DNA from: Endozoicomonas montiporae CL-33
GTDB taxonomy: Bacteria; Pseudomonadota; Gammaproteobacteria; Pseudomonadales; Endozoicomonadaceae
DNA: 64,000 nucleotides
Direction: 5' to 3'
Assembly: GCF_001583435.1 (NCBI RefSeq)
Contig: NZ_CP013251.1
Location: forward strand, 121,001 to 185,000
Part shown: positions 14,243 to 30,176 of the stretch, in pieces
How the letters are laid out: the number at the start of each line of letters is the position of its first letter
Numbering within the stretch: position 1 is the first letter of the stretch
Program-made: the position numbers and the translations under genes
Notes under the pieces: generated by a model
What the model saw: the letters and a program-made list of their open reading frames with translations, nothing else
What the model was told of the DNA's origin: nothing
Database searches by the model: none

Positions 14243-14365
14243 GAACGGCGACTTCTTAAATTGTGCGTGTTCTTTTCTGACAAGAGAGGCGGGATAAAAT
14301 TCCGGAAATGTTGAGCAGTAAAACGACAGGCGTGACAAGGCGTGGTACAGATGCTCAAGGTATTC

Positions 14366-14543
14366 ATACCAATTCCCCTTTCTAAACATGAATTGCGCAG
14401 CCATTCTGAATCACGGGAGCTGCGTTGGAACTCCTCGCAATAGCTCGCTATTACTCGTCGTTCCGCCTTTATGCCCTTTAGGGTATTGTCCCGCGACCCA
14501 GAATAGCTTGCTCATGGTCATATTTAGAAAGCGGAATTGGTAT
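14366..14543. repeat. MITE-like element with 26-bp terminal inverted repeats, copy 1
   Basis: The left end ATACCAATTCCCCTTTCTAA (continuing to 14391) is nearly the reverse complement of the right end at 14518-14543, with two mismatches in 26 bases. The element is 178 bp and non-coding. It recurs at 48203-48361, with a 17-base internal palindrome (ATGCCCTTTAGGGTAT) present only here. Both ends abut TA, as expected for insertion by an IS630/Tc1-type transposase, but that source is inference. It fills most of the gap between radC and ptsI. Confidence 0.85.
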
Positions 14544-14610
14544 CGCTGTGCCAGCCGTCGTCACGCTTGTCTTAAATCGTGGGCTTAAATAGCGGGCTTA
14601 AATAGCGGAC

Positions 14611-16320
14611 TTAAAGAGCGAATTCGCTAACCAGCTGACGAACCGCTTCGCCGTCCTCTGCATTCAGGCACTGTTCCGCCAGTGCTTCCAGATTGGCACT
14701 GCTCTGTGCTCTCAGAACCTTCTTTATCTTCAGAACGGATGGCGCAGACATACTGAATTCATCCAGCCCGAGACCGGCCAGAATCAGTGCTGCCTGTTCA
14801 TCACCGGCAAATTCACCGCACATGCCTGTCCATTTACCAGCGGCATGAGACGCATCGATAACCCGTTTGATGGCGCGCAGTACCGAGGGTGAGAAGCTGT
14901 CATACAGGTGGGCAATGCTCTCGTTACCACGGTCAACCGCCAGAATGTACTGGGTCAGGTCGTTGGTGCCAATGCTGAAGAAGTCCAGCTGGGCAATCAG
15001 CTGATCTGCAATCATCACGGCAGCCGGAGTTTCGATCATAATGCCGACTTCGATCTGTTCATCAAAAGTCACAGCGGCTTCCCTCAGGGACGTTTTGGCC
15101 TGTTCAACATGGGCTTTCAGCTGTTTCACTTCCTGTACCGAAATCACCATTGGGAACATGATACGCAGCTTGCCAAAGGCACTGGCTCGTAAAATAGCAC
15201 GCAACTGGGTTTGCAGAATTTCAGGACGATCCAGACACATGCGAATGGCGCGCCAGCCAAGGAATGGATTCAGCTCGCTGGGCAGATCCATATAGGGCAG
15301 CTCCTTGTCGCCGCCAATATCCAGAGTGCGGATAATCACCGGCTTGTCCTGCATCGTTTCAGCCACCGCTTTATAAGCTTCAAACTGAACCTGCTCGGAA
15401 GGCATACTGCTGCGATCCATAAACAGGAACTCGGTGCGATACAGACCAATGCCCTCGGCACCATTTGCAACAGCACCTTCAGCATCTTTAGGTGTGCCAA
15501 TGTTGGCGCACAGCTCAAAGTGCTTGCCATCCAGCGTAACCGCAGGGGCATCTTTCAATTTCAGCAGTTCGCTCTTTTCCGCGATCAGCTTGTCCTGACG
15601 CTCACGAGCCTGTGTCAGCTGTTGTTCGGAAGGATTGGCAATCAGTTGATTGTTGATGGCATCTAGAATAATCAGTTCGCCGTCCTTAATGTCTGAACAG
15701 GCTTTCTGACAGCCCACCAAAGCTGGAATTTCCAGCGAGCGAGCCATAATGGCCGAGTGGGAAGTGCGACCACCAATCTCGGTGACAAAACCCAGCACCT
15801 TGTTCAGATCCAGCTGGGCAGTATCAGACGGTGTCAGGTCATTGGCGAGAATAATAGAGTTGTCGTCCAGTTCGTTCAGGCCGGTTGTCGAAATACCCAG
15901 AATGATTTTGATCATGCGGGAACCTACATCACGGAAATCGGCAACCCTTTCCCTGATATAGTCCTTATCCACTTCCAGCAGCATGTCTACATTGCTTTCA
16001 ATGGCTTTATGCAGGGCAACGGCAACAGGAAGGCCTTGCTGAATGAATTCCAGAACCTCTTCTTCCAGCGATTCATCATCAGCGATTTCCATGTGGCCTT
16101 CAAAGACTTCAGCCTCTTCTTCGCCGAGTTTTGCCAGTACATCGTTGTACAGTTTATCCAGCTGGCTAATCGCTGCAGCCTTTGCTTTTTTGAACTGATC
16201 AAACTCGGCCTGAACATTCTCTGTAGCAACGTTGTATTCCGGCAGAACCAGTTCCTGCTCAACGTGGATAACCGCTTTACCAATCGCAATGCCTTCAGAG
16301 GCAATAATTCCGTTCAACAT
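14611..16320 (-). CDS. ptsI: phosphoenolpyruvate-protein phosphotransferase (PTS Enzyme I)
   Basis: The 569-residue protein is a full-length Enzyme I. The phosphorylated histidine lies in GGRTSHSAIMARSLEIPALVG near residue 190. The PEP-binding barrel has EGIGLYRTEFLFMDR near 290, and the catalytic cysteine is in GMCGEFAGDE near 500. It passes phosphate from PEP to HPr. It lies downstream of an IS-disrupted transketolase and beyond that the HPr gene, all on the minus strand, so it probably belonged to the ascorbate/pentose PTS operon. Whether it still receives transcription through the IS inside tkt is unclear. Confidence 0.97.
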   Translation of the reverse strand: MLNGIIASEGIAIGKAVIHVEQELVLPEYNVATENVQAEFDQFKKAKAAAISQLDKLYNDVLAKLGEEEAEVFEGHMEIADDESLEEEVLEFIQQGLPVAVALHKAIESNVDMLLEVDKDYIRERVADFRDVGSRMIKIILGISTTGLNELDDNSIILANDLTPSDTAQLDLNKVLGFVTEIGGRTSHSAIMARSLEIPALVGCQKACSDIKDGELIILDAINNQLIANPSEQQLTQARERQDKLIAEKSELLKLKDAPAVTLDGKHFELCANIGTPKDAEGAVANGAEGIGLYRTEFLFMDRSSMPSEQVQFEAYKAVAETMQDKPVIIRTLDIGGDKELPYMDLPSELNPFLGWRAIRMCLDRPEILQTQLRAILRASAFGKLRIMFPMVISVQEVKQLKAHVEQAKTSLREAAVTFDEQIEVGIMIETPAAVMIADQLIAQLDFFSIGTNDLTQYILAVDRGNESIAHLYDSFSPSVLRAIKRVIDASHAAGKWTGMCGEFAGDEQAALILAGLGLDEFSMSAPSVLKIKKVLRAQSSANLEALAEQCLNAEDGEAVRQLVSEFAL

Positions 16321-16360
16321 ATCAATCTACTTCCTGAATTCCATGGCGGTTAGCCGCCGG

Positions 16361-16381
16361 AGGCAGACGTTCCGTCTGCCT
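16361..16381. terminator. hairpin between tkt and ptsI
   Basis: AGGCAGACG (16361-16369) pairs with CGTCTGCCT (16373-16381) around a 3-base loop. It has no T-run on the minus strand, so it could be an attenuating or RNA-stabilising structure between two operon genes rather than a terminator. Confidence 0.45.
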
Positions 16382-16822
16382 TCTCAAATTGATTATTTAC
16401 AAAATGGCTTCTGCTGTTTTGACAATGTTTTCAACGGTAAAGCCGAACAATTTGAACAGTTCGCCAGCGGGTGCAGACTCACCAAAGCCCTTCATGCCCA
16501 CTACCGCACCATCCAGACCCACATACTTGTACCAGTAGTCTTCAATCAGGGCTTCAACGGCAACACGGGCCTTCACTTCGGCAGGCAAAACGTGCTGACG
16601 GTATTGGGTATTCTGTTTCTCGAACACTTCAGGAGAAGGCATGGATACAACGCGAACCTTACGACCCTGTGCTGTCAGTTTGGCCGCCGCGTCCACTGCC
16701 AGAGAGACTTCGGAACCCGTCGCCAGCAGAATCAGTTCCGGTGTTCCTTCACAGTCCTTGAGGATGTAAGCCCCCCGGGCAATATCCGCCAGCTGTTGTT
16801 CATTTCGATCCTGATGCACTAG

Positions 16823-18542
16823 CCCGGATATTTCATAAACAAGCAGCAACTACCATCCCATCCTCTTAATTTTGGACTTTTCCGCAAGCCTGTTGCTCTG
16901 TTAACCATGTGAAAGACATTGCAGCCCATACTTGCTTACAGATTAGACGCTAATCAACGAATCCTGCTATTTCAGGATAACGGAAAGCCCCAGGGCTCTT
17001 TCATCTGGTTGCTATGTACCTTGATTGAGTCTTATGAAAGTTGCTACCCCGGTCGAAGTATCGGCATCTGGTAAAAGACTTCTGTCACATGCTGCAAAAG
17101 CCTCTTGAATGGGCAGCTACGCGGCAGATGAAGTTTAATTCGGTCTTTATATTCAACCACTTTGACTGCAACTTTACAGAGCTTCATGATCACCGTTGAT
17201 GGCTGCGCTTTTTCCAGCTCCGTACCTTTCAAAGTCTTGGTTCTTAACTCATAGTGCAAAACATAAGCGGCACAGGCATAAAACATTCTCAAATGGTTAG
17301 CCAAAAAGCCCTGATCGGACAATCTGTCGCCGGACAGATCACTTTTCAGATGTTTGATGAAGTTCTCATCCTGTCCTCTTGGACAGTAAAGCTCTTCATA
17401 AATTACCTCTGGAGAAGCTTCCTTCATCGACGTCACAATGAAACGAGGGTTGTCGCCTTTTTGGTTGACCTCCGCCTTGTAAATTATCCGGGTATCGATA
17501 CCTTTCCAGCTCTTGGCCTGGTATTCTGCTTCCCCGTAAAGTCTGAGCCGATCAGGTTCTGGCATGTTGTTCAGTCTTGCCAGCTCAGTCTTGACCTTCA
17601 GAGCTTGACGCGCTTCATCCAACAACTCTTTGGCTTTTGGCCGCAAAGCCGTTTTGTGGCCTGCACCTTTGCCCAGGACATAATCCGAATGAGGGGCATT
17701 CTGAACCACCCACATTAACTCTGGTTGAGCGAAGTGGCTGTCTCCCCGAACCAGTAGATGGGTTTTCGGCCACTTTTTCCGAAGCAGCCGAATGACCCGT
17801 TCGAGAATGGCTGCATTTTCCTTGCCCGTTGGGGTTTTCCCCGGACGAAGAATCGCCGTAATCAGCTTGCCGCTGAGTCCCTCAAAAATCATCAGGGGCA
17901 AGTAGCAGTAGTCCTGATATTTGGCATTAAACAGGTTCATCTGCTGGCCACCATGAGTAATGGCCGGTGTATGATCAAGATCGATAACGATCACCGGAGG
18001 TGGCAGCTTGTAACTGCTGATAAAGTGATGCACAAATGCTTCAGCCATCCTGTAAATGTCGGAGCGGGTCATAGATTGTCCCAGCCGGGTAAAAGTGGGC
18101 GCTGATGCGAGATGGTTATCGCTGTCCAACGGATTGCGACCAGTGGCCAGTTTGAACATAGGGTCTTTACGCAAACGGTTACTGTCGTTGGCATCTTCAT
18201 AGCCGCAGGCCATTTGCAGAACCCGCTGAACCAGAAGTTCTTTCAGGGAGTGGTCGATATAGGATTGATGGCGTCTGTCATTGATGGCATCAGTCATTTT
18301 GCAGATAAGACCGCTCTGCAGAATGGTTTCCCGTAGCAGCAGAGTGCCAAAGTCAGAAGATAACTCCCCACCATTGAAGTCTGCCCGGATGGTTTTTCCA
18401 TTTGAGGGATGAAAACGAAGCTGTTCTTGTGTAGATTTGGGCATGGCAAGTTCCGGTTTGCTTCTTCCGAAGCTTTCTTTTGGTCGACCCAATTATATCA
18501 AGTGATTGGGCGGAACTTGCCTCCTTTTATGAAATATTCGGG
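16823..18542 (-). mobile_element. IS1380-like insertion sequence, copy A (in tkt)
   Basis: The 1,720-bp element has ends CCCGGATATTTCATAAA (left) and the inverse of TTTTATGAAATATTCGGG (right), which are near-perfect inverted repeats. It is flanked by the 4-bp duplication CTAG (16819-16822 and 18543-18546). It encodes one transposase on the minus strand, the same direction as the disrupted gene. A second copy of equal length at 24316-26035 differs at only a handful of bases, so both insertions are recent. Confidence 0.95.
17044..18492 (-). CDS. IS1380-family DDE transposase, copy A
   Basis: The 482-residue protein has a DDE transposase core of the IS1380 type: VIVIDLDHTPAITHGGQQMN near residue 170, THLLVRGDSHFAQPELMW near 245, and a C-terminal QDENFIKHLKSDLSGDRLSD with the last acidic residue. 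It cuts and inserts the surrounding element. The true start may be the internal methionine at MPKSTQEQLRF (18444), since the first residues lie close to the element end. The reading frame is intact, so the element may still move. Confidence 0.9.
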   Translation of the reverse strand: MGRPKESFGRSKPELAMPKSTQEQLRFHPSNGKTIRADFNGGELSSDFGTLLLRETILQSGLICKMTDAINDRRHQSYIDHSLKELLVQRVLQMACGYEDANDSNRLRKDPMFKLATGRNPLDSDNHLASAPTFTRLGQSMTRSDIYRMAEAFVHHFISSYKLPPPVIVIDLDHTPAITHGGQQMNLFNAKYQDYCYLPLMIFEGLSGKLITAILRPGKTPTGKENAAILERVIRLLRKKWPKTHLLVRGDSHFAQPELMWVVQNAPHSDYVLGKGAGHKTALRPKAKELLDEARQALKVKTELARLNNMPEPDRLRLYGEAEYQAKSWKGIDTRIIYKAEVNQKGDNPRFIVTSMKEASPEVIYEELYCPRGQDENFIKHLKSDLSGDRLSDQGFLANHLRMFYACAAYVLHYELRTKTLKGTELEKAQPSTVIMKLCKVAVKVVEYKDRIKLHLPRSCPFKRLLQHVTEVFYQMPILRPG

Positions 18543-20143
18543 CTAGGTTCTGGCGGGACAGAATCAGTGCAGTAGGCGCTGTGTCGGTCTCAAGTGCTGA
18601 TTTCCATGCGACAGCCGTTTCAACCGTGTCACAGGGACGCCAGGTCACCATGTTCGGTGTCATACGCAAGTTGGCAACCTGCTCCACAGGCTGGTGGGTC
18701 GGGCCGTCTTCACCCAGACCAATGGAGTCGTGGGTATAGACGTGAATGGTGCGCTGTTTCATCAGGGCGGACATACGCAGGGCGTTGCGGGCGTATTCCA
18801 TAAACATCAGGAAGGTGCCGCCATAAGGCACAAAGCCACCGTGCAGGGCAATGCCGTTCATGATGGCACTCATACCAAACTCGCGCACACCGTAGTTCAG
18901 GTAGTTACCCGAAGCCTCTTCTCTGGAAATAGACTGACAATCTTTCCAGAAGGTCAGATTTGATGGTGCGAGATCCGCAGAGCCACCCAACAGTTCCGGC
19001 AGTTCCGGGCCAAACCGGTTGAGTGCATTCTGGGAAGCCTTGCGACTGGCAATCACCTCGCCCTTTTCCTGACAGGCTTTGATATAGGCATCGGCTTTTT
19101 CAGAAAAATCGTCTGGCAGTTCGCCTTGCATACGACGTTGGTATTCTTCAGCCAGTTGTGGGTATTCGGCGCGGTAAGCATCGAACGTCTGCTGCCATTC
19201 ATGTTGCAGGGCGGTGCCTTTTTCAATGCCGTTCCAGACGCTGTAAATGGTTTCAGGCACTTCAAAAGCTTCGCCTTTCCAACCCAGACGCTCTTTGGTC
19301 AGACGAATTTCTTCGGCACCCAAAGGCGCACCGTGGCAGTCTTCCTTACCTTCTTTATTAGGAGAACCAAAACCGATAATGGTTTTGCAGCAGATCAGCG
19401 TCGGCTTTTCCGTTTCTGCCTGAGCGGCTTCAATGGCCGCTCGAATCTGTTCCGGGTCGTGGCCGTCTACCGCACGTAATACCTGCCAGCCATAGGCTTC
19501 AAAACGCTGGGCAGTGTCGTCGGTAAACCAGCCTTCCACTTCACCGTCAATGGAAATACCGTTGTCGTCGTAGAACGCAATGAGCTTACCCAGTCCCAGT
19601 GTTCCCGCCAGCGAACAGACTTCGTGGGAAACACCTTCCATCATGCAGCCGTCACCCAGAAAGGCGTAAGTGTGGTGATCGACAATGGCATGCTGGTCAC
19701 GATTAAACTGGGCTGCCAGTGTCTTTTCCGCAATCGCCATACCTACCGCGTTGGCAATGCCCTGCCCCAGTGGCCCAGTGGTGGTTTCAATACCGGGTGC
19801 ATAACCGTATTCCGGGTGCCCCGGTGTTTTGGAGTGCAGTTGCCGAAATCCTTTCAGATCATCGATAGACAGGTCGTAGCCGGTCAGGTGCAGCAGCGAG
19901 TACAGCAGCATGGAGCCATGACCGTTGGACAGCACAAAACGGTCACGGTTGGTCCAGTCCGGATTGGCGGGGTTATGTACCAGAAACTCACGCCATAATA
20001 CTTCGGCGATATCTGCCATCCCCATTGGGGCACCCGGATGTCCGGAATTGGCTTTCTGTACAGCATCCATACTCAATGCACGGATGGCGTTAGCTCGTTC
20101 CCTGGCGGTTGTCTTTGTCATCTCTTACTCCAGAATCTTATAA

Positions 20144-20989
20144 TCAGGCGGCTGTCGTGCAGTCAGCGCCGGTAACGTACTTTTCAATCAGGCTGGCAAT
20201 GCTGTCGTCGTCATTGCTGCCAATAAACTCATCTGCAACCGATTTCAGAGTTTCGCTGCAGTTGCCCATGGCTACACCCAGACCAGCCATGCGAACCATG
20301 CTGATATCATTGTCGTTGTCGCCGACAGCAATAATATTTTCACGCTCAATGCCCCATCGTTCTGCCAGTCTCAGCAAAGTGCTGCCTTTGGTATTGCCAC
20401 TGTTGGCAATATCAATCCGGTCTACCCAGGAACGCTCACAACTGACGTCAGTCATCGTCTGAATATGCTGGTAGGCAGAAAGGAACTGTTCCTGATCAGT
20501 GTGTGATAAGACGAACTTATGAATAGTGCTGGCCGATTCCATAACGGCCAGGGCATCATCAATCTGCTTTATATTGGGTCTTACGATTTCAGGTTGTGCC
20601 TTTGCCCAGTTGGACAGCCTTTCCATATGCGGATTCAGCACTTCATAGGTCATGGCATCCTCGACATACATCAGAATGTGCATATCCCGATCACGGGCGA
20701 TTTTGATAATCCGGCGTGCCTGATCTTTTGACAGCGGGTTGCTATAAACAGGCTCTGGCTGACTGAAATCCATGATGTACGCGCCATTGCAGCAGATAGC
20801 AGGCGTATCCAGTCCCAGTTCATAATGGTAAGGGCGAACCGCGACATGATGGCGACCGGTTGCCAGTACCACTTTTGCTCCGTGTGCCCGGGCTTCCCTG
20901 ATTGCTTGTTTTGAGCTTTCCAGAATAGTGCCTTTGCTGTTGAGCAAGGTGCCGTCCAGATCAAAAGCAATTAATTTTTTGCTACCCAT
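20144..20989 (-). CDS. Cof-type HAD-IIB sugar-phosphate phosphatase
   Basis: From the ATG at 20989 (MGSKKLIAFDLDGTLLNSKG) the protein has 281 residues. The nucleophile motif DLDGT and the C-terminal VGDNDNDISMVRMAGLGVAMGN define a Cof/YidA/YbiV-like HAD phosphatase. Substrates of such enzymes are sugar phosphates or related metabolites. A methionine two codons upstream (20995) and a TTG at 21028 are alternative starts; an AGGA precedes the chosen ATG. It lies between ptsH and tkt, 23 bases from tkt, so it probably belonged to the same operon. Confidence 0.9.
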   Translation of the reverse strand: MGSKKLIAFDLDGTLLNSKGTILESSKQAIREARAHGAKVVLATGRHHVAVRPYHYELGLDTPAICCNGAYIMDFSQPEPVYSNPLSKDQARRIIKIARDRDMHILMYVEDAMTYEVLNPHMERLSNWAKAQPEIVRPNIKQIDDALAVMESASTIHKFVLSHTDQEQFLSAYQHIQTMTDVSCERSWVDRIDIANSGNTKGSTLLRLAERWGIERENIIAVGDNDNDISMVRMAGLGVAMGNCSETLKSVADEFIGSNDDDSIASLIEKYVTGADCTTAA

Positions 20990-21065
20990 CGTCATTCCTG
21001 AATGCTTGATTGGGAAAACCATTTTCAATCACGAGTATTAAGAATGGCTTTCAGAACGGTGAAAT

Positions 21066-21092
21066 AAAAAGGCAGCCATGAATGACTGCCTT
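21066..21092 (-). terminator. intrinsic terminator or attenuator after ptsH
   Basis: AAGGCAG (21069-21075) pairs with CTGCCTT (21086-21092), and on the minus strand the stem is followed by a TTTTT run. It sits just past the ptsH stop, so it would lower transcription into the HAD-tkt-ptsI part of the operon. Confidence 0.7.
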
Positions 21093-21100
21093 GTTCAAAG

Positions 21101-21361
21101 TTAACCTTCCAGCTGGGCAACAAAGTCGGTGAGGTACTTCACCGCTTCAAACTCATCCGCACCGTCTGCATGAATCTGAATCACGTCGTCTTTGCAGATG
21201 CCAGCGCCCATCAGCTTCATCAGACTTTTACCACTGACTTTTTTCTCGCCTTTCTGCACCGTGATATCGCTTTCAAACTGCTTGCAGGCTCTGACGAAGT
21301 TCTTGCCGGGACGGGTGTGCAGGCCGTTTTCGTTGACGATGGTGACTTCTACTGTTTGCAT
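21101..21361 (-). CDS. ptsH: phosphocarrier protein HPr
   Basis: The 86-residue protein MQTVEVTIVNENGLHTRPGK has the active histidine of HPr in NGLHTRP (residue 15) and the conserved serine region KKVSGKSLMKLMGAG. It accepts phosphate from Enzyme I and gives it to sugar-specific EIIA. The ATG at 21361 gives a full-length HPr; a longer upstream reading is in a different gene's frame region and is not credible. It begins 55 bases after the ulaF remnant, so this HPr was most likely dedicated to the ascorbate PTS of the same operon. Confidence 0.96.
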   Translation of the reverse strand: MQTVEVTIVNENGLHTRPGKNFVRACKQFESDITVQKGEKKVSGKSLMKLMGAGICKDDVIQIHADGADEFEAVKYLTDFVAQLEG

Positions 21362-21416
21362 GGTCTTACTTCCTGAATTCTGGTCTTGAATACTTTCTTT
21401 ATTACTTCTGGCTTTA

Positions 21417-21862
21417 CTACTTCTGACCGTAATAAGCGTTCGCGCCGTGTTTGCGCAGGTAATGCTTGTCCAGCAGGGTGCTGTCGATATCAGACAATCT
21501 TGGATTAATGGTGATGGAGCGAAATGCCATCTTGGCCACTTCTTCCATGACGACTGCATTGTGAACCGAGTCCATAGCATTCTTGCCCCAGGCAAAAGGC
21601 CCGTGCTGGAACACAATGATGCCCGGAATCGACATCGGGTCCTGATCGGCAATGGTCTCAATGATCACATTGCCGGTTTCCACTTCATATTCGCCCTGGA
21701 TTTCGTCTTCCGTCAGTGCACGGGTGCAGGGAATCTCGCCGTAAAAATAGTCGGCATGTGTCGTTCCCAGTGCCGGAACCGCACAACCTGCCTGAGCCCA
21801 GGAGGTAATGTAGGATGAGTGGGTATGAACAACTCCCCCGATCTGTTCATACGCTTTATAAA
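21417..21862 (-). pseudogene. ulaF: ulaF remnant (L-ribulose-5-phosphate 4-epimerase, C-terminal part)
   Basis: Only the last 148 or so codons of an AraD/UlaF/SgbE-type epimerase remain: [38 protein letters not shown], then [11 protein letters not shown] and a C-terminal [17 protein letters not shown]. The zinc-binding HTHS motif is present but the N-terminal third, including the start codon and substrate-binding glycines, is missing. The break coincides exactly with the end of an insertion sequence at 21863. UlaF converts L-ribulose-5-phosphate to D-xylulose-5-phosphate at the end of ascorbate catabolism. The remnant has no start of its own. Confidence 0.92.
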
Positions 21863-23557
21863 CCTAAATTCATCACTTGAGAATCCCGACTAAACTGTAA
21901 CCCCATCTGCGAAGAGGGATACAGATGATTTTTCCACCAAAATCTGTTCACCCAAAAGGTGAACTTAAAGAACTCAGCAAAAAGTGCTCAACGACCTCTC
22001 TTGAAGTGGACACGTTTGAGGGAAAAATCCATGTTGAGTGGGAACCTGGCGCATCAGTCACACCAATGGGGCAGTTACCCTTTTTTATTCAGTTTTTAAA
22101 AACAGGTTGTAGATTTGAACCATGGGTTGAAGATTGCCCTTTAACTTACAAAAGCAATAACGCACCTGAAAAAGTTAATGTAATAGGTTCCCTTTTTCTC
22201 TCAATACTCTCAGGTCACAAACGTTATGCTCATATTGGAACGTTAACCGGGGATGGAGTGAATCCCAAATTACTGGGTATGACAAAGGTAGTCAGTGATG
22301 ATTCTGCTCGTCGGGGTTTACTCAAAATAGATGAGAAAGAAGGTGTTGAATGGATGCAGCATCATTTGCAGGAATGCTATGAACCCTTATTAAAGTTACC
22401 ATGGATATTAGATGTCGACGTTACGATAAAAACCATTTACGGAAGTCAGGAAGGAGCAGAAACAGGTTATAACCCTCATAAGAAAGGGCGTCCTTCACAT
22501 ACTTATCATTCTTACATGATGGCTAATTTAAAGCTGGTTCTTGATGTTGAAGTTCAGCCCGGTGATAAAGGAAACAGTAAGCATTCATTGCCCGGTTTAA
22601 TAAATCTATTAAACCGTCTACCAAAAGAGTGTTGGCCTGAATTTGTTCGAGGTGATTGTGACTGGGGCAGTGACAGAGTGATGTCAGAACTCGAACAAGC
22701 AAATTGTGGTTATCTATTCAAAGTAAAGAAGACAGCCAACGTCAAAAAGTCCATATACCATGCGCACTGTAGCGGGGGATGGGTTCGCTACAACAGATAT
22801 TGGGAAGGCAAGGAGTCAGAATTAAAACTAGGTGGTTGGGAGAAATCAAGACGAATCATTATTGTTCGAAGAAGATTATCAGGTGATTCTCTGTTGCTGG
22901 AGAAAGAGAATAATAAGAAGCAAAAAGAAATCGCTTTTATCTCAGACCCTGAAAACATCAAACTCTTTGAGTACTCAGTATTAGTGACCAGTCTTGATAA
23001 TGACGTTGTATCCATCATAGATCATTACAGAGACAGAGCTGACTGTGAAAATAATTTTGATGAAATCAAAAATCACTGGGGATGGGGAGGTTACACAACC
23101 AAGGATATAAAGCGATGTCGTATTCTATCAAGGATGGTTGCACTGGCATATAACTGGTGGACTTTGTTTGTAAGACTGAGCAATCCTGATTCGCATAAAG
23201 AAGCAATAACCAGCAGGCCATTATTGATGAGTGCTATTGGCAAGTTAACAGAGAGTGGGCGTAAGAAAAAAATAACGATTACCAGTCAGCATAATTTGAT
23301 AAAAAAGATCCAAACAATGCAGGAAGATCTCTGTGTATTTTTTGATGCCATTAAGAAGACTGCAGCGCAGTTGACTCCAATTGATATCTGGTGCCGAATA
23401 TTAACGAGGGCTGTGTCGAAATTTTTAACAAAAGGTGAAATTATTACGCCTGTCCAGCTTATTAACTCAAGTTAAGCGAAAGCAAGGTTTAGCAGGATAG
23501 TAGCTGGCATTGCTCTCTTAGAGCGCGGTGGGTAATCGCTCAACTGCTGAATTTAGG
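21863..23557 (+). mobile_element. DDE insertion sequence at the ulaG-ulaF deletion junction
   Basis: The 1,695-bp element has inverted ends CCTAAATTCATCACTTGAG (left) and CCTAAATTCAGCAGTTGAG (right, read inward). The left end cuts into ulaF and the right end into the last codons of ulaG. No target duplication is seen: the left flank is TTTATAAA and the right flank TTCAATGG. The family is uncertain; the transposase resembles IS4/IS1380-type DDE enzymes. Its direction is opposite to the two 1,720-bp elements around it. Confidence 0.88.
21925..23475 (+). CDS. DDE transposase (IS4/IS1380-like superfamily)
   Basis: The 516-residue protein has a clear DDE core: LDVDVTIKTIYGSQEGAETG near residue 165 with the first aspartate, EFVRGDCDWGSDRVMSELE near 240 with the second, and YRDRADCENNFDEIKNHWGW near 375 with the catalytic glutamate. 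The lead-in GYNPHKKGRPSHTYHSYM is typical of its subgroup. The frame is intact. It shares no obvious close similarity with the IS1380-like transposases flanking this region and was a separate arrival. Confidence 0.88.
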   Translation: MIFPPKSVHPKGELKELSKKCSTTSLEVDTFEGKIHVEWEPGASVTPMGQLPFFIQFLKTGCRFEPWVEDCPLTYKSNNAPEKVNVIGSLFLSILSGHKRYAHIGTLTGDGVNPKLLGMTKVVSDDSARRGLLKIDEKEGVEWMQHHLQECYEPLLKLPWILDVDVTIKTIYGSQEGAETGYNPHKKGRPSHTYHSYMMANLKLVLDVEVQPGDKGNSKHSLPGLINLLNRLPKECWPEFVRGDCDWGSDRVMSELEQANCGYLFKVKKTANVKKSIYHAHCSGGWVRYNRYWEGKESELKLGGWEKSRRIIIVRRRLSGDSLLLEKENNKKQKEIAFISDPENIKLFEYSVLVTSLDNDVVSIIDHYRDRADCENNFDEIKNHWGWGGYTTKDIKRCRILSRMVALAYNWWTLFVRLSNPDSHKEAITSRPLLMSAIGKLTESGRKKKITITSQHNLIKKIQTMQEDLCVFFDAIKKTAAQLTPIDIWCRILTRAVSKFLTKGEIITPVQLINSS

Positions 23558-24315
23558 TTCAATGGTGAAGCAGTCGTCAAAACCGCGAGGGTGCTGATAT
23601 TCCATACGACCCAGGTCGGTCGGGTAGGTGTATTTGCCGCCTACCTGCCAGAAGAACGGAGCAAACTGATATTGCAGACGGTCTTTCTTCATTTCCCACA
23701 GAACCTTGATTTCACGCGGGTCGTTCTGGAAGTTTGCCCAGATGTCGTGATGGAAAGGCATCACCACCTTGGTCTTCAGGGATTCGCCCATGCGCAGGAT
23801 ATCGGAAGCAGTCATCTTGTCGGTGATACCGCGCGGGTTTTCGCCGAAGGAACCCAGGGCAACGTCAATCTGGTGTTCGTTACCGTGCTTGGCGTAGTAG
23901 TTGGAGTAGTGGGAATCACCGCTGTGGTACAGGTTGCCGCCCGGGGTCTTGATCAGGTAGTTCACTGCACGCTTGTCCATGCCGTCAGGCAGCTGGTTTT
24001 TGGCTTCAACGCCTACGGGCAGTGTGATCAGGGCTGTACGGTCGAAAGATTCCAGGGCTACAATTTCCATGTCGCCTACTTTCACGGTGTCACCGGGCTT
24101 AACTGTAATGCAACGCTCGGCTGGAACGCCCCACTCTGTCCACATTTTCACACAGGCTTCAGGGCCAATGAAGGGAACCGAGTCGTCGCAGTTTTGCAGA
24201 ACAGCAGCAGCTACGTTGATATCAATGTGGTCGTTGTGATCGTGGGTGGACAGAATGGCATCCACTTCCTTAATGGCGAATGGGTCCATTACGAAAGGAG
24301 AGGTGCGCAGGTTAG

Positions 24316-26035
24316 CCCGGATATTTCATAAACAAGCAGCAACTACCATCCCATCCTCTTAATTTTGGACTTTTCCGCAAGCCTGTTGCTCTGTTAACCA
24401 TGTGAAAGACATTGCAGCCCATACTTGCTTACAGATTAGACGCTAATCAACGAATCCTGCTATTTCAGGATAACGGAAAGCCCCAAAGCTCTTTCATCTG
24501 GTTGCTATGTACCTTGATTGAGTATTATGAAAGTTGCTACCCCGGTCGAAGTATCGGCATCTGGTAAAAGACTTCTGTCACATGCTGCAAAAGCCTCTTG
24601 AATGGGCAGCTACGTGGCAGATGAAGTTTAATTCGGTCTTTATATTCAACCACTTTGACTGCAACTTTACAGAGCTTCATGATCACCGTTGATGGCTGCG
24701 CTTTTTCCAGCTCCGTACCTTTCAAAGTCTTGGTTCTTAACTCATAGTGCAAAACATAAGCGGCACAGGCATAAAACATTCTCAAATGGTTAGCCAAAAA
24801 GCCCTGATCGGACAATCTGTCGCCGGACAGATCACTTTTCAGATGTTTGATGAAGTTCTCATCCTGTCCTCTTGGACAGTAAAGCTCTTCATAAATTACC
24901 TCTGGAGAAGCTTCCTTCATCGACGTCACAATGAAACGAGGGTTGTCGCCTTTTTGGTTGACCTCCGCCTTGTAAATTATCCGGGTATCGAGACCTTTCC
25001 AGCTCTTGGCCTGGTATTCTGCTTCCCCGTAAAGTCTGAGCCGATCAGGTTCTGGCATGTTGTTCAGTCTTGCCAGCTCAGTCTTGACCTTCAGAGCTTG
25101 ACGCGCTTCATCCAACAACTCTTTGGCTTTTGGCCGCAAAGCCGTTTTGTGGCCTGCACCTTTGCCCAAGACATAATCCGAATGAGGGGCATTCTGAACC
25201 ACCCACATTAACTCTGGTTGAGCGAAGTGGCTGTCTCCCCGAACCAGTAGATGGGTTTTCGGCCACTTTTTCCGAAGCAGCCGAATGACCCGTTCGAGAA
25301 TAGCTGCATTTTCCTTGCCCGTTGGGGTTTTCCCCGGACGAAGAATCGCCGTAATCAGCTTGCCGCTGAGTCCCTCAAAAATCATCAGGGGCAAGTAGCA
25401 GTAGTCCTGATATTTGGCATTAAACAGGTTCATCTGCTGGCCACCATGAGTAATGGCCGGTGTATGATCAAGATCGATAACGATCACCGGAGGTGGCAGC
25501 TTGTAACTGCTGATAAAGTGATGCACAAATGCTTCAGCCATCCTGTAAATGTCGGAGCGGGTCATAGATTGTCCCAGCCGGGTAAAAGTGGGCGCTGATG
25601 CGAGATGGTTATCGCTGTCCAACGGATTGCGACCAGTGGCCAGTTTGAACATAGGGTCTTTACGCAAACGGTTACTGTCGTTGGCATCTTCATAGCCGCA
25701 GGCCATTTGCAGAACCCGCTGAACCAGAAGTTCTTTCAGGGAGTGGTCGATATAGGATTGATGGCGTCTGTCATTGATGGCATCAGTCATTTTGCAGATA
25801 AGACCGCTCTGCAGAATGGTTTCCCGTAGCAGCAGAGTGCCAAAGTCAGAAGATAACTCCCCACCATTGAAGTCTGCCCGGATGGTTTTTCCATTTGAGG
25901 GATGAAAACGAAGCTGTTCTTGTGTAGATTTGGGCATGGCAAGTTCCGGTTTGCTTCTTCCGAAGCTTTCTTTTGGTCGACCCAATTATATCAAGTGATT
26001 GGGCGGAACTTGCCTCCTTTTATGAAATATTCGGG
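24316..26035 (-). mobile_element. IS1380-like insertion sequence, copy B (in ulaG)
   Basis: The second 1,720-bp copy has the same ends as the one at 16823-18542. It is flanked by the 4-bp duplication TTAG (24312-24315 and 26036-26039). It lies in the same orientation as copy A, 7.5 kb away, and differs at only about seven bases (for instance AGG/AAA near 24486 and ATA/GAG-type changes near 24990). It is thus a very recent duplicate. Confidence 0.95.
24537..25985 (-). CDS. IS1380-family DDE transposase, copy B
   Basis: This 482-residue transposase is identical to copy A except for one conservative change (KGIDTRI there, KGLDTRI here, near residue 330). Motifs and frame are intact. See the first copy for domain details; the likely start is again the internal MPKSTQEQLRF (25937). 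Confidence 0.9.
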   Translation of the reverse strand: MGRPKESFGRSKPELAMPKSTQEQLRFHPSNGKTIRADFNGGELSSDFGTLLLRETILQSGLICKMTDAINDRRHQSYIDHSLKELLVQRVLQMACGYEDANDSNRLRKDPMFKLATGRNPLDSDNHLASAPTFTRLGQSMTRSDIYRMAEAFVHHFISSYKLPPPVIVIDLDHTPAITHGGQQMNLFNAKYQDYCYLPLMIFEGLSGKLITAILRPGKTPTGKENAAILERVIRLLRKKWPKTHLLVRGDSHFAQPELMWVVQNAPHSDYVLGKGAGHKTALRPKAKELLDEARQALKVKTELARLNNMPEPDRLRLYGEAEYQAKSWKGLDTRIIYKAEVNQKGDNPRFIVTSMKEASPEVIYEELYCPRGQDENFIKHLKSDLSGDRLSDQGFLANHLRMFYACAAYVLHYELRTKTLKGTELEKAQPSTVIMKLCKVAVKVVEYKDRIKLHLPRSCPFKRLLQHVTEVFYQMPILRPG

Positions 26036-26316
26036 TTAGGCTGCAGCTTCTCAACACCCGCCATGCGCTGCATCTGGTGTTGCTTTTTCATCAGAGGATT
26101 GCCGTGGGTGCGCTTGCCGGTACCACACCAGAAATCAACACAGATGTTGGTGCTACCTTCAGACTTTACCCAGATGCCGGTGCAGCCCAGCCACCACATG
26201 GCGAACGTGCCGGGCTGAACCTGTTCCTGTTCAATCTCTTCATTCAGCCAGGTTCCCCACTCGGGGAAAGTGTTTAGGATCCAGGACTCTCTGGTAATAT
26301 CGCTGACACGGTTCAT

Positions 26317-26709
26317 CAATCAATCCTCTACTTCTAACTGGTCAAGCAGTGTTCTGCTCTGTTGTGAGCTGTTGTGATTTGCTAATCACTGTAATGACCT
26401 AAGTTGATTATTTAAAGTGATCTAAGTCAATTGTTTTCATTTGTAATCATTAAGATTGACATGAATCATCAAAAACTTGCATGGAAAAATAGAAAAACAG
26501 GCATATAAGTAACAAAAAAGTTTAATAAAATCAGATAGATATATGAATTTGTCAGATAGGGATTGAAAAAGATGCATCCAGCAAGGATTTCTAATCATTT
26601 ACAATCATAAAAATGATCATATAATCATTTATGTAATCATGGCGGCAGACAGGTAAGAACCTATATGAGCCTTGAAGAACGAGGCCGTGAATAACAATGG
26701 TGCAACGAT
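26317..26709. promoter_or_regulatory. divergent ulaG-ulaR control region
   Basis: These 393 bases between the divergent ulaG and ulaR starts are very AT-rich and hold no gene. They contain a perfect palindrome GTGATTTGCTAATCAC near 26375 and many copies of the core AATCAT, mostly in two groups (about 26375-26470 and 26590-26640). Such spaced repeats fit a DeoR-type repressor that loops DNA between distant operators, as known for E. coli UlaR. Confidence 0.6.
26590..26640. promoter_or_regulatory. AATCAT repeat cluster, probable UlaR operator
   Basis: Within 51 bases the word AATCAT occurs four times on the plus strand (CTAATCATTTAC, ACAATCATAA, TATAATCATTTATG, GTAATCATGG) and the inverse ATGAT once. 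The cluster ends 69 bases before the ulaR start. It is a candidate for autoregulation by UlaR. Confidence 0.5.
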
Positions 26710-27495
26710 ATGAACGAACAGCTCAGGCACTCGGAAATACTGAGTTACTTGAAAGAAATGGGGCAGATCAGTGTGCAGGAGCTGGTCAGCCAGTTTTCAA
26801 TTTCTCCTGCAACAGCCCGACGGGACATCAATAAATTAAACGACCTTGGGCGTTTGCATAAGGTTCGTAACGGGGCTGTTAATCTGGAGAATACACCGGA
26901 AACAGCTCAACCGGTGCCTGCACCGGTTTATCAGCTGATGAGTCCACCGGCTGACGCCGTTCATAATCCCGTAGAAAAAAACCGCATTGCAGAAGTGGCT
27001 GCCAGTCTCTGCAAAGAGGGAGAAAGTGTCATCATCAACTGTGGCACAACCGCCTTTATAATGGGCGCGAAACTGGCCGGGCGTGATGTGCAGGTTATTA
27101 CCAACTACCTGCCACTGGCAAACCACCTGATCATTGAAAAGCATGAGAAGGTCATCATCCTGGGTGGTCAGTATTATGCAGGTTCAAGCAGTACCATGAC
27201 GCCGTTTGAAGGTGATGCCCAGCTTTATTCAGCACATTACATGTTTACCAGTGGTGCCGGTCTTACTGATCAGGGGCTGACCAAGGTCGACCCCATGACA
27301 GTGATGGTTGAGCAGAGAATGCTGAAACAGGCCGACAAGCTGGTGGTGCTGGTTGACAGCAGCAAACTGGGAGTAAGGAGTGGCTTGCTGTTTTGTCGCG
27401 CCAGCGAGATAGATATTCTGATTACCGGACGGGAAGCTGATCCGGACATTCTGAAAGCCCTCGAACAAAAAGGGATAGAGATTGTATTAGCGTAG
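26710..27495 (+). CDS. ulaR: DeoR-family repressor, UlaR-type
   Basis: The 261-residue protein has the DeoR layout. An N-terminal winged helix-turn-helix reads SILSYLKEMGQISVQELV-like at residues 7-25 (here SEILSYLKEMGQISVQELVS) with FSISPATARRDINKLNDLG following. The C-terminal sugar-phosphate-binding domain has NCGTTAFIMGAKLAGRDVQV near 115 and VDSSKLGVRSGL near 217. It is divergent from ulaG, as in enterobacteria where UlaR represses ulaG and ulaA-F and responds to ascorbate-6-phosphate. It appears intact although its target operon is destroyed. Transaldolase follows 47 bases downstream. Confidence 0.9.
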   Translation: MNEQLRHSEILSYLKEMGQISVQELVSQFSISPATARRDINKLNDLGRLHKVRNGAVNLENTPETAQPVPAPVYQLMSPPADAVHNPVEKNRIAEVAASLCKEGESVIINCGTTAFIMGAKLAGRDVQVITNYLPLANHLIIEKHEKVIILGGQYYAGSSSTMTPFEGDAQLYSAHYMFTSGAGLTDQGLTKVDPMTVMVEQRMLKQADKLVVLVDSSKLGVRSGLLFCRASEIDILITGREADPDILKALEQKGIEIVLA

Positions 27496-27542
27496 GTTGG
27501 GGAGCCTGCGTTTTGAAACAGTAAAACAACCGGAGTAATTGT

Positions 27543-28493
27543 ATGAAAAGCCAGTTGGATCAACTCAGGAAGCTCACCAAAGTAGTGGCAGATACGGGAG
27601 ATATTGAGGCTATTCGCCAGTATCAACCGGTTGATGCCACCACCAACCCGTCTCTTATTCTCAAGGCCGCAGCACTGCCGGACTATCAGCCGTTGCTGAA
27701 AGAGAGCATTGAATGGGCACAGGCTCAGGGTGAAGAGGATATTGCTGCCCTTGCCTGTGACTGGCTGACTGTCAATATTGGCAAGGCCATTCTGGATGTT
27801 GTGCCCGGGCTGGTGTCAACCGAAGTGGATGCACGATTGTCTTTTGATACCGAAGCCACTGTTAAGAAAGCTCAGAAAATAATTGAGCTTTATCGCTCTA
27901 TCGGTGTGGATACAGATCGCGTCCTGATCAAAATTGCTTCTACCTGGGAAGGAATTCGTGCCGCCGAAACTCTGGAACAGCAGGGAATCCGGTGTAATCT
28001 GACGCTATTGTTTTCTTTTGCACAGGCTAAAGCGTGTGCAGATGCCGGCGTTTACCTGATCTCGCCTTTTGTCGGTCGGATAATGGACTGGTATAAAGCC
28101 AGTCAAGGCGTGGAACGTTTTGCACCGGAAGAAGATCCTGGTGTTCTTTCAGTGAGTAAGATCTACAACTATTACAAACAGAATGGCTTCAAGACGGTTG
28201 TGATGGGTGCCAGCTTCAGAAATATTGATGAAATACGACAGCTGGCAGGTTGTGACTGCCTGACCATTGCTCCGCCATTGCTGGACGAATTAAGTAATAG
28301 CAAAGAGCCTCTTGCTCATAAACTACAGAAGCCGTTTGAAATATCTGACAGACAGCCTGAAGCTATCACTGAATCCGTATTCCGCTGGGAGCACAATGAA
28401 GATGCCATGGCGACAGAAAAGCTGGCAGAAGGCATACGACTGTTTGCCAAAGATCAGCAGAAGCTGGAAGGCTTGTTGAGTAGTTACCTATAA
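27543..28493 (+). CDS. tal: transaldolase
   Basis: The 316-residue protein matches TalB-type transaldolases: [20 protein letters not shown] at the start, [16 protein letters not shown] near residue 30, the Schiff-base lysine in [17 protein letters not shown] near 130, and [20 protein letters not shown] near 220. It transfers dihydroxyacetone units between sugar phosphates. A GGAG lies seven bases before the ATG. It follows ulaR closely, so it probably shares its transcript and completes the non-oxidative pentose phosphate set with the broken transketolase. Confidence 0.97.
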
Positions 28494-28541
28494 GTAGTTA
28501 CTTGAAATAAGTCGATGGTCGATTGATCATCAGAAAGCCTA

Positions 28542-28576
28542 ACCATTCAGGGTTTTAGTTATAAACCCTGAATGGT
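28542..28576. terminator. convergent hairpin between tal and the HPr-like gene
   Basis: A perfect 14-bp stem (ACCATTCAGGGTTT at 28542-28555 with AAACCCTGAATGGT at 28563-28576) and a 7-base loop lie between two converging genes. It is probably a bidirectional terminator although T-runs are short. Confidence 0.7.
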
Positions 28577-28589
28577 GTAATCAGTGACT

Positions 28590-28835
28590 TCAATAGCCGA
28601 TGCACTCCCTGATTAAGATGACAGCCTGAGACTCATCGTCGCCTGAAATGCGTAGCGTGACGTTTTCATCCATCTTCATGGTACTGATCAGTTTTCTGCC
28701 TGACTGAATATCAACGACATTGTTGTTCGCTTCAAACATTACTTTACTGTCGAAAAGGCTGCAGACCTTCATTAGTTTGTGGTACCGGCTTGTAATGTTC
28801 CTGGCGGTTCCCGGGTTAATCGTTATGGTCTTCAT
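28590..28835 (-). CDS. HPr-like protein without the active-site histidine
   Basis: From the ATG at 28835 the protein has 81 residues: MKTITINPGTARNITSRYHK at the start, then VMFEANNNVVDIQSGRKLIS and ENVTLRISGDDESQAVILI. Order and spacing match HPr: the second half aligns well with the ptsH product of this window (DVIQIHADGADEFEAVKYL). At the position of HPr histidine 15 (GLHTRP) it has NITSRY, so threonine replaces the histidine. Phosphate transfer from Enzyme I is therefore not expected. It may be a regulatory HPr paralogue. A longer frame begins at 28901. It lies beside tal, convergent with it. Confidence 0.65.
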   Translation of the reverse strand: MKTITINPGTARNITSRYHKLMKVCSLFDSKVMFEANNNVVDIQSGRKLISTMKMDENVTLRISGDDESQAVILIRECIGY

Positions 28836-29163
28836 AATTCTGCGAGAAAGCTGTTCGCTTTCTTTCCCCCTGTATAAATGATGCATGACCTGTGCAGGCA
28901 CAGATCCGCCGTTGGTCAGACGTGTTGCTGTTATGGTTCTTGGCTGCTTGCCGCAGGTAATCCCGTTACGGCGTCAGGCATTAGAGATCTGTTTCTTGTT
29001 GTAAAAGTAGGATCATATGATCTGGTTGTGTTCATATGATTGACGATTTTGGTGTACGTTATTTTGATCTGCGTCAATTATTTCATATGAAACTGAAGCA
29101 GAAGGTGTTCATACGATCTTGTGCTGAACATAATGATGCCGCTCAGCAAACAATGAGGAAAAA
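28836..29163. other. control region between the HPr-like gene and the SorC-type regulator
   Basis: These 328 bases carry no gene. The right half holds three TCATATGA boxes and one variant, listed separately, and a near-consensus FNR/Anr box TTGATctgcGTCAA at 29064-29077. The left half shows nothing beyond the leader of the HPr-like gene. Confidence 0.5.
29013..29116. promoter_or_regulatory. repeated TCATATGA boxes, probable SorC-type operators
   Basis: The 8-bp palindrome TCATATGA occurs at 29013-29020, 29032-29039 and 29083-29090, with TCATACGA at 29109-29116. The first two are 19 bases apart. They end 48 bases before the regulator start. The SorC-family protein they precede is the most likely binder. 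Confidence 0.6.
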
Positions 29164-30138
29164 ATGGAGTCTATTGATTGCGCAGAATGTGACACGGAGC
29201 TACTGACCAGAGTTTCTATTCTTTACTATCAGGAAGGCTGGACTCAGGATCACATTGCCAGAGAGCATAAAATATCAAGGATTAAAGTCGGTCGCCTGCT
29301 GAAAAAAGCCAGGGATCATGGCATTGTCGAGATCAATATCAGGCATCACCCCGTTTACAGCACCAATCTTGAGCATCAACTGCAAAAAGCGTTCGGCTTA
29401 AAGACGGCACTGGTTGCCATTGACCAGTCATCGGAAGAAGAACAAAGAAATCAGGTGGCCCGAGTGGTGCTGAAGTACCTGTCGGACACGTTAAGGGATG
29501 GTGATGTCGTTGCTGTTGGTCAGGGACGGAATATTGCCGCTATCGCCGAGACCAGTACATTTGTTCACCCCCGTAACGTTCGTTTCGTGTCGGCTATTGG
29601 CGGTACGCATCCGGCGGGTGACGAGATCAATGCCGATCATATTTGTCGTAAGCTGGCCAAACGTTTTAACGGGGTATCCGAAACTCTCTATGCCCCGGCT
29701 TATGTTGGCTCTCCGGAACTGGTCGAACAGCTGATGCAGAACGATACCGTTAAGCAGACGCTGGATCGTGCACGCAAAGCCGATATCGGCATTGTAGGTA
29801 TCGGGGATCTCAATGAAAACAACCATACGGTGAAGTTGGACTGGTTTTCCCCACAGGAGCTTGCCAAGGTACGACGTGAGCAAGGTGCCGTGGGCGATAT
29901 GATGGGTTACGATTTTTTCCGGCTGGATGGGCAGTACGTTGAATCCGATATAAAAGGCAGAATCATAGGGCTGACGACGTCTGAACTAAAACAAATGCCG
30001 GAAGTGATTGGCATTGCCAGCGAAAGCTCGAAAGTGCTGGCTACCTTTGGCGCGCTTCAGACCGGGAGTATCAGTATACTCGCCACCACCGTTAATAATG
30101 CGCTTGCCTTACTCAGTCTGGCTGAAAAACATTTGTAG
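29164..30138 (+). CDS. SorC/DeoR-type sugar-binding transcriptional regulator
   Basis: The 324-residue protein begins with a helix-turn-helix (LYYQEGWTQDHIAREHKISR and IKVGRLLKKARDHGIVEI). The SorC-type sugar-phosphate-binding domain follows from about residue 65, with VGQGRNIAAIAE, a YAPAYVGSPELVEQL stretch and VGIGDLNENN. A GAGG lies six bases before the ATG. SorC proteins respond to phosphorylated sugars and often control nearby transport genes, but no transporter is adjacent here, so the target may be itself or lost genes. Palindromic boxes upstream suggest autoregulation. Confidence 0.9.
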   Translation: MESIDCAECDTELLTRVSILYYQEGWTQDHIAREHKISRIKVGRLLKKARDHGIVEINIRHHPVYSTNLEHQLQKAFGLKTALVAIDQSSEEEQRNQVARVVLKYLSDTLRDGDVVAVGQGRNIAAIAETSTFVHPRNVRFVSAIGGTHPAGDEINADHICRKLAKRFNGVSETLYAPAYVGSPELVEQLMQNDTVKQTLDRARKADIGIVGIGDLNENNHTVKLDWFSPQELAKVRREQGAVGDMMGYDFFRLDGQYVESDIKGRIIGLTTSELKQMPEVIGIASESSKVLATFGALQTGSISILATTVNNALALLSLAEKHL

Positions 30139-30157
30139 CCAACAGCTTTGGCATTGG

Positions 30158-30176
30158 GCCGTTTAAAACGGCTTTT
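30158..30176 (+). terminator. terminator after the SorC-type gene
   Basis: GCCGTTT (30158-30164) pairs with AAACGGC (30166-30172), followed by TTTT. It overlaps the stop codon of the large gene on the other strand, so the two genes end face to face. Confidence 0.6.

What the first reader, a model, noticed from the sequence alone, without database searches (positions are those of the whole stretch)
14611..28835. Ascorbate-PTS island with its own HPr, Enzyme I and pentose-phosphate enzymes, dismantled by three insertion sequences
Seen: ulaG, ulaF remnant, ptsH, a HAD phosphatase, tkt and ptsI lie on one strand; ulaR and tal face away. Two genes are cut by IS copies, ulaF is truncated at a third IS. 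Known: UlaG and UlaF act in E. coli ascorbate catabolism, which ends in xylulose-5-phosphate, used by transketolase and transaldolase. Inference: this was one regulon that carried general PTS proteins as well as specific ones, and it is decaying, perhaps because the host no longer supplies ascorbate. Regulator, HPr, EI and tal still look intact, so loss is recent.
Basis: partly seen in the sequence, partly recalled or inferred. Interest (0 to 1): 0.9.

Follow-up and report, generated by a model that had tools for sequence, protein, structure and literature searches.

The report
Eroding ascorbate-use island in Endozoicomonas
A coral-associated bacterium carries a vitamin C-eating gene island that also contains its own copies of the shared sugar-uptake energy proteins, and jumping genes have recently broken it; a relative carries the same island, broken in a different way.

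Summary
ulaG, the ulaF 3' part, ptsH, a Cof-type phosphatase, tkt and ptsI share a strand; ulaR and tal are divergent. ulaG and tkt are each cut by one IS1380-family element with clean duplications. A different element sits where ulaA-E should be; its flanks are unequal but both fit its target, so two copies probably recombined and deleted the genes between. No UlaA-family gene remains in the genome (probably E. montiporae CL-33).

Another Endozoicomonadaceae genome (G034) has the same order, tal-ulaR <> ulaG-ulaABCDEF-ptsH-HAD-tkt-ptsI, supporting one ancestral unit with its own HPr and Enzyme I. That copy decays by other lesions at another site. In 8 genus relatives checked the radC-coaBC spot has other cargo or none, so I read this as an island gained, then lost. 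Its EI groups with EIs linked to an N-acetylgalactosamine PTS, not the housekeeping EI.

Cof hydrolases, tkt/tal neighbours and mobile ula islands are documented; the built-in ptsH-ptsI pair is the new variant. The ascorbate-supply explanation is untested.

The parts
14611..16320 (-). ptsI: Enzyme I, 569 aa, intact; last gene of the island
   Evidence: TIGR01417 723.7 bits over 341.7; PRK11177 807.5 bits, just under its 824 cut-off; tree
16397..16822 (-). tkt 3' piece (positions 521-652 of the 654-position model)
   Evidence: TIGR00232 167 bits; IS-A between the two pieces
16823..18542 (-). IS-A copy 1 (1720 bp) inside tkt, CTAG duplication
   Evidence: the transposase of the near-identical copy in ulaG meets NF033539 (IS1380 family)
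18543..20121 (-). tkt 5' piece
   Evidence: TIGR00232 845.8 bits
20144..20989 (-). Cof-type HAD phosphatase (YbhA/pyridoxal-phosphatase-like), intact
   Evidence: NF007821 294.9 bits over cut-off 274; a relative lies next to ulaF in G297 and in two of three Vibrio loci
21101..21361 (-). ptsH: HPr, 86 aa, GLHTRPG motif present, intact
   Evidence: PF00381 91.6 bits; 80% to G034
21417..21862 (-). ulaF 3' part (E. coli UlaF residues 81-228)
   Evidence: 66.9% identity to E. coli UlaF
21863..23557 (+). IS-B (1695 bp; best match IS1380 but below that model's cut-off); marks the loss of ulaA-E and the 5' part of ulaF; flanks unequal
23558..24315 (-). ulaG 3' piece; its last codons are replaced by the IS-B end
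   Evidence: 75% to E. coli UlaG residues 91-346 of 354
24316..26035 (-). IS-A copy 2 inside ulaG, TTAG duplication
26036..26316 (-). ulaG 5' piece
   Evidence: 84% to E. coli UlaG residues 1-94
26319..26709 (.). divergent control region between ulaG and ulaR; three of the four TAATCATT sites in the window (both strands) lie here: candidate UlaR operators, untested
26710..27495 (+). ulaR: DeoR-family repressor, intact
   Evidence: NF010034 335.6 bits over cut-off 244
27543..28493 (+). tal: transaldolase, intact; end of the island
   Evidence: TIGR00874 490.7 bits; 82% to G034

Best explanation
This is the wreck of a self-contained ascorbate-use island. In its intact form UlaA/B/C would import L-ascorbate as the 6-phosphate, with phosphate drawn from PEP through the island's own Enzyme I and HPr. 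UlaG, D, E and F would convert it to xylulose 5-phosphate, and the island's transketolase and transaldolase would feed that into glycolysis; UlaR represses the set. The island sits at a variable radC-coaBC spot and was probably acquired there. It was then inactivated by two IS-A insertions (ulaG, tkt) and by deletion of ulaA-E, most simply by recombination between two IS-B copies. Shown: order, lesions, absence of UlaA, the same order in G034 at another site, no ula genes at this spot in 8 relatives. Inferred from family knowledge: substrate, phosphate flow, order of events, acquisition rather than repeated loss.
For: Same order in G034 with matches to ulaA-F between ulaG and ptsH. No PF03611 match in the window's genome, while 4 of 14 control genomes ring, E. 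coli included. IS-A: 22 of 23 copies of 1719-1720 bp have equal 4-bp flanks, both window copies among them. IS-B: 7 of 7 other full copies have an exact 5-bp duplication of form WTNAW; the window copy has unequal flanks ATAAA/TTCAA that both fit WTNAW, a form at 2.2% of positions in the island outside the IS. dN/dS between the two island copies, where computable: 0.067 ulaG 3' piece, 0.041 ptsH, 0.049 tkt part, 0.081 ptsI C-terminus (4 of 9 comparisons, ptsH with dS 3.0 and so rough). radC-coaBC spot without ula in 8 of 8 genus genomes examined; the ninth, G004, gave no anchor match and was not examined. Two full-length tkt copies and other EI and HPr genes elsewhere.
Against: Island identity to G034 (ulaG 88%, tal 82%, ptsH 80%, HAD 71%) is not clearly above that of the one core gene compared (trhP 82%), so transfer is argued only from site and patchiness. 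dS was saturated for 5 of 9 island comparisons. G034 is a 91% complete draft in about 780 contigs; some of its lesions could be assembly errors. No intact copy of the whole island was found. No integrase or attachment site was identified at the borders (not searched for systematically). The two IS-A copies differ at 7 sites, so they are not fresh copies of each other.
Confidence: 0.78

Rival explanations
1. The ula genes and the ptsH-HAD-tkt-ptsI block are two unrelated units brought together by chance or IS-driven rearrangement in this genome only.
For: ptsH, ptsI, tkt and tal are not beside ula in E. coli, one Salmonella plasmid, three Vibrio records or G297 (6 of 6 loci without). 0 of 80 EI loci have a UlaA-G match within the fetched flanks (up to 10 kb, shorter on some contigs); one (L008) has a weak UlaR hit.
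Against: G034 has the same order and orientation at another genomic site, and the window's transposase frames found no match on that contig.
Confidence: 0.06
2. The island is ancestral in the family and was lost vertically in nearly all lineages; the window and G034 are the last remnants.
For: Identity between the two copies is close to that of a core gene; related EI/HPr loci look eroded in other members.
Against: Different neighbours in the two genomes: radC and hpl/sorC versus ArsR/ZntA-like genes and pdxY; no ula at the radC spot in 8 of 8 genus genomes examined; ulaG in 2 of 37 family genomes.
Confidence: 0.2
3. The third lesion is one IS-B insertion followed by a one-sided deletion, not recombination between two copies.
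For: IS elements can delete adjacent DNA (general knowledge); the result, one IS without a duplication, is the same.
Against: Both flanks of the window copy fit the WTNAW target; a one-sided deletion would leave one flank random, and only about 2% of positions fit.
Confidence: 0.15
4. The surviving ptsH, ptsI, HAD, ulaR and tal are still used, for example as an extra phosphate supply for other PTS transporters.
For: All five reading frames are intact; related HPr genes persist without a nearby EI in four genomes, with dN/dS 0.04-0.15 in the four pairs compared.
Against: On the minus strand they lie behind the IS elements, and the operon's first gene is cut; expression is not testable here. Intactness also follows from recent decay.
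Confidence: 0.2

Closest known systems
E. coli ula regulon (ulaR-ulaG / ulaABCDEF)
   Same: UlaR, UlaG and the A-F order (A-F seen in G034); identities 50-84% between the window pieces and E. coli
   Different: Here ulaG heads the A-F run and ulaR is divergent from it; ptsH, HAD, tkt and ptsI follow ulaF and tal follows ulaR. None of these lies beside ula in the 13-kb K-12 stretch
Ula regulons of Tolumonas, Vibrio, Haemophilus and Yersinia (PMC3219644, section 9 read)
   Same: The paper reports Cof-like hydrolases commonly inserted in these regulons, transaldolases and transketolases bracketing ula in T. auensis, and a ula regulon in a mobile island in Yersinia; I saw the Cof hydrolase in two of three Vibrio loci and in G297
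   Different: 'HPr' does not occur in the paper's main text; no ptsH-ptsI pair was found beside ula in the 6 loci I checked
aga-type (N-acetylgalactosamine) PTS island of E. cretensis and G031
   Same: Ends in a ptsH-ptsI pair whose EI is 74-75% identical to the window's
   Different: Different sugar genes: IIC and IIB over the AgaW and N-acetylgalactosamine IIB cut-offs, IID below the AgaE cut-off, AgaS, AgaZ/GatZ, AgaR, KDPG aldolase, sulfatase
EI and HPr genes inside one transporter's cluster (PMC2405797, passages)
   Same: EI and HPr encoded with a single transporter, e.g. the fructose-class PTS cluster of Haloarcula marismortui
   Different: 'ascorbate' and 'N-acetylgalactosamine' do not occur in that paper's main text

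Membership tests
ula (L-ascorbate utilisation) regulon | UlaG lactonase of the orthologous group | tested here: met
   NF008688 450.8 bits (cut-off 306) on the 3' piece alone; 75-84% to E. coli
ula (L-ascorbate utilisation) regulon | UlaR repressor adjacent to ulaG | tested here: met
   NF010034 over cut-off; adjacent and divergent
ula (L-ascorbate utilisation) regulon | UlaABC transporter present | tested here: not met
   No PF03611 (UlaA) match in the genome; UlaB and UlaC sought only in the window, none. In G034 ulaA is open (471 aa), ulaB and ulaC are partial matches. The window is a remnant, not a working regulon
ula (L-ascorbate utilisation) regulon | UlaD, E, F present | tested here: not met
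   In the window only the 3' part of ulaF remains; UlaD and UlaE were not sought in the rest of the genome
ula (L-ascorbate utilisation) regulon | Growth on ascorbate or UlaG activity | not testable with these tools
   needs culture or enzyme assay
PTS general proteins (EI, HPr) | HPr phospho-acceptor His in GLHTRP and EI full length | tested here: met
   GLHTRPG in the window HPr; EI matches TIGR01417 positions 1-564 of 565
PTS general proteins (EI, HPr) | Orthologue of the housekeeping EI | tested here: not met
   In a quick tree of 31 rows the window EI is in a five-row clade (SH-aLRT 99) apart from the genus's other EIs; window and L160 branches are long
IS1380 family | Transposase meets curated cut-off | tested here: met
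   IS-A 365.1 bits, cut-off 180; IS-B 134 bits, below cut-off, so IS-B is not filed there

The most novel reading that the evidence does not exclude
Endozoicomonadaceae have a second EI-HPr lineage that recurs inside different sugar-PTS islands (ascorbate, N-acetylgalactosamine), making each island energetically self-sufficient and able to work in hosts with poor or incompatible general PTS proteins. When the sugar genes are lost, the HPr alone or the EI-HPr pair may persist.
Probability: 0.4. Interest if true: 0.55.

Novelty: new variant of a known kind. Interest (0 to 1): 0.42.

Why it matters
General PTS proteins are usually shared by all PTS sugars of a cell. An island that brings its own pair, with relatives of that pair beside an unrelated sugar system in the same family, offers a clear test of whether phosphate relays can be kept private and moved between genomes. 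The same island caught broken in two genomes by different lesions also gives an example of probable gain followed by loss. A 2023 paper reports genes for ascorbate uptake and anaerobic degradation in two other coral-associated species, E. milleporae and P. poriteae (PMC10235432, passages), so working copies may exist.

Tried and rejected
Chance assembly of unrelated genes: rejected by the same order in G034. IS-B as a third copy of IS-A: rejected, different element. His-less HPr-like ORF at 28590-28835 as part of the island: rejected, it pairs with the SorC-type gene in G007, which has no ulaG. Broken tkt as a central-metabolism lesion: rejected, two full-length copies at 427145 and 842052. 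Truncated EI-like ORF in G007 (L157) as a second wreck of this island: rejected, 36% identity over 4-250 and no ulaG in that genome. The UlaA-type gene of G006 as the same island: rejected, it lies with IIA, IIB and split transketolase genes and that genome has no ulaG. Weak UlaG matches in G005, G013, G042, G044 and G045 (24-29% identity) were not counted as ulaG. In the HPr count I used E<=1e-20; a 48%-identical stretch in a 379-aa frame of G006 (E 7.8e-14) was left out. In one search, L065 has a transaldolase match (53%) and L038 a weak transketolase match (25%) within the EI flanks, neither with ula genes. Wider sampling: UlaG in 2 of 369 class genomes (the window's and G297) at E<=1e-60; window HPr at E<=1e-16 in 3 of 369, and neither of the other two lies beside ula in its 3-kb locus. 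A UlaG search of the plasmid collection gave 25 records, 5 of which I opened. Structure prediction and fold search were not used.

Literature: searches. 'Endozoicomonas' with 'HPr' gave 0 papers; Endozoicomonas, phosphotransferase system and ascorbate gave one, PMC10235432; ulaG/ptsH/ptsI/operon/transketolase gave one, on Streptococcus pneumoniae, seen as a listing only. 'PTS' and 'ascorb' do not occur in the main text of the E. montiporae genome paper, nor 'ascorb' in PMC5240137. On these searches only, I found no report of this island. Seen as passages: PMC4781883, PMC5240137, PMC10235432, PMC2405797; passages and section 9: PMC3219644; all others as listings.

Full report
What is there. The window is bases 121001-185000 of a single 5,430,256-base contig. 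The genome is very probably Endozoicomonas montiporae CL-33: the published assembly is 5,430,252 bp (PMC4781883, passages) and the nearest named EI matches are Endozoicomonas. The tools did not name it. On the minus strand, in reading order, lie ulaG, the 3' part of ulaF, ptsH, a Cof-type HAD phosphatase, tkt and ptsI; on the plus strand, divergent, ulaR and tal. Family models bear out the names.

Lesions. One 1720-bp IS1380-family element (IS-A; NF033539) cuts ulaG and tkt, each time with an exact 4-bp duplication. The genome holds 23 copies of 1719-1720 bp, of which 22 have equal 4-bp flanks. A different 1695-bp element (IS-B) lies between the ulaG 3' end and ulaF; E. coli UlaG aligns to residue 346 of 354 and E. 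coli UlaF only from residue 81. By the E. coli spacing about 4 kb is missing. The other 7 full-length IS-B copies all have exact 5-bp duplications of the form WTNAW. The window copy alone has unequal flanks, ATAAA and TTCAA, and both fit that form, which occurs at 2.2% of positions in the island outside the IS. The simplest reading is two IS-B insertions, one near the end of ulaG and one in ulaF, that recombined and removed what lay between. No UlaA-family gene (PF03611) is left in the genome, while E. coli and three other control genomes ring. The remaining coding pieces are free of further stops, which fits recent decay.

Was it one unit? G034, a family member coded to another genus (91% complete, about 780 contigs), has on one 15.6-kb contig: tal and the ulaR 3' part, then divergent ulaG, ulaA, and matches to ulaB, ulaC, ulaD, ulaE and ulaF, then ptsH, HAD, tkt and ptsI. 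ulaG, ulaA, HAD and tal are open. ulaB, C and D are partial, ulaE is partial with stops, ulaF is split between frames, ptsH has a stop, tkt keeps only its first part with frame breaks, ptsI only its end, and ulaR lacks its start. So the ancestral order is supported and this copy is decaying by other lesions. Because G034 is a fragmented draft, some lesions could be assembly errors. Between the two copies dN/dS is 0.04-0.08 for the four pieces where dS could be computed (4 of 9 comparisons; ptsH with dS 3.0 is rough), so the genes were probably under selection for most of their divergence.

Gain and loss. ulaG occurs in 2 of 37 family genomes; five others have only 24-29% matches. I examined the radC-coaBC spot in 8 of the 9 other genus genomes: the two genes are adjacent in four and 2.5-5.1 kb apart in four, and none has ula there; the ninth, G004, gave no anchor match. 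In G034 the island lies between an ArsR/ZntA-like pair and pdxY. Different sites and patchy presence argue for acquisition. Against this, island identity to G034 (71-88%) is not clearly above that of the one core protein compared (82%). The genome paper describes at least 452 mobile elements, about 9.07% repeats and 56 genes inactivated by insertions (PMC4781883, passages), so the damage needs no special cause such as missing ascorbate.

Redundancy. The genome has two more full-length transketolases, three other EI-type genes in frames of 577, 762 and 853 aa, and further HPr-family genes. Loss of the island need not damage central metabolism.

The EI-HPr pair. In a quick maximum-likelihood tree of 31 EI rows (17 of the 80 loci, the window, and 13 loci from whole genomes), the window EI joins those of E. 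cretensis (L008), G031 (L158), SESOKO1 (L007) and G041 (L160) in a clade with SH-aLRT 99, apart from the genus's other EIs. The window and L160 branches are long, so placement is less sure than the number suggests. In E. cretensis and G031 the pair ends a run kdgK (named by eye)-KDPG aldolase-sulfatase-ptsH-ptsI, with agaR and the aga-type transporter genes on the other strand beside it. The SESOKO1 contig is too short to show its sugar genes. In G041 the pair lies beside a truncated AgaR-like gene. In G015, G029, G032 and G037 an HPr 80-85% identical to that of E. cretensis stands without an EI in the fetched stretch. So 9 of 37 genomes carry an HPr matching the window's at E<=1e-20: 2 with ula, 2 with aga, 1 with an AgaR-like remnant, 4 without EI nearby. 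Of 80 EI loci fetched, none has a UlaA-G match within the flanks; one (L008) has a weak UlaR hit.

How it would work. From established knowledge of the Ula pathway (recalled): phosphate passes from PEP through EI, HPr, UlaC and UlaB, and UlaA delivers ascorbate 6-phosphate; UlaG opens the lactone; UlaD decarboxylates; UlaE and UlaF give xylulose 5-phosphate; transketolase and transaldolase carry it into glycolysis. The role of the Cof phosphatase is unknown. It recurs beside ula genes in G297 and two of three Vibrio loci, and Cof-like hydrolases in ula regulons are described as common (PMC3219644, section 9). That paper also records transaldolases and transketolases around ula in Tolumonas auensis and a mobile ula island in Yersinia. 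What I did not find, in the searches or in the loci checked outside this family, is the ptsH-ptsI pair inside a ula unit.

Verdict. It is a new variant of a known kind, of moderate interest, with a testable idea about private phosphate relays.

Noticed in passing
window 28590-28835 (-) with 29164-30138 (+): An 81-aa HPr-like protein (PF00381 22.9 bits, cut-off 23) whose phospho-acceptor His position aligns with Thr while Arg17 is kept, divergent from a SorC-type regulator. The pair recurs in G007 (70% and 91% identity; dN/dS 0.10 and 0.05); the HPr-like gene is found in 2 of 37 family genomes. Like Crh of Bacillus it lacks the His (recalled).
   Followed up: partly
dN/dS 0.04-0.15 in four pairs.
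   Followed up: partly
L087 and L088 (G006): A UlaA-type IIC gene with IIA, IIB and split transketolase genes lies in pieces on two contigs, with a transposase-like frame (by eye) at one edge: perhaps another IS-hit PTS island.
   Followed up: no
window radC-coaBC spot, 14303-33588; L219, L225, L226, L230: Variable spot in the genus: ula island, HPr-like/SorC pair, what looks by eye like a toxin-antitoxin pair (G007), or a large ORF (window, G005, G009), depending on the genome; about 5 kb not annotated in G003.
   Followed up: partly
window 30163-33456 (-): A 1097-aa protein with a poly-Lys stretch and a coiled-coil-like region (by eye); no NCBIfam match at 1e-5; 33-36% relatives at the same spot in G005 and G009.
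   Followed up: no
L157 (G007:C1:1806001-1826000), 10506-11534: A 342-aa truncated EI-like ORF near what look by eye like transposase genes.
   Followed up: no
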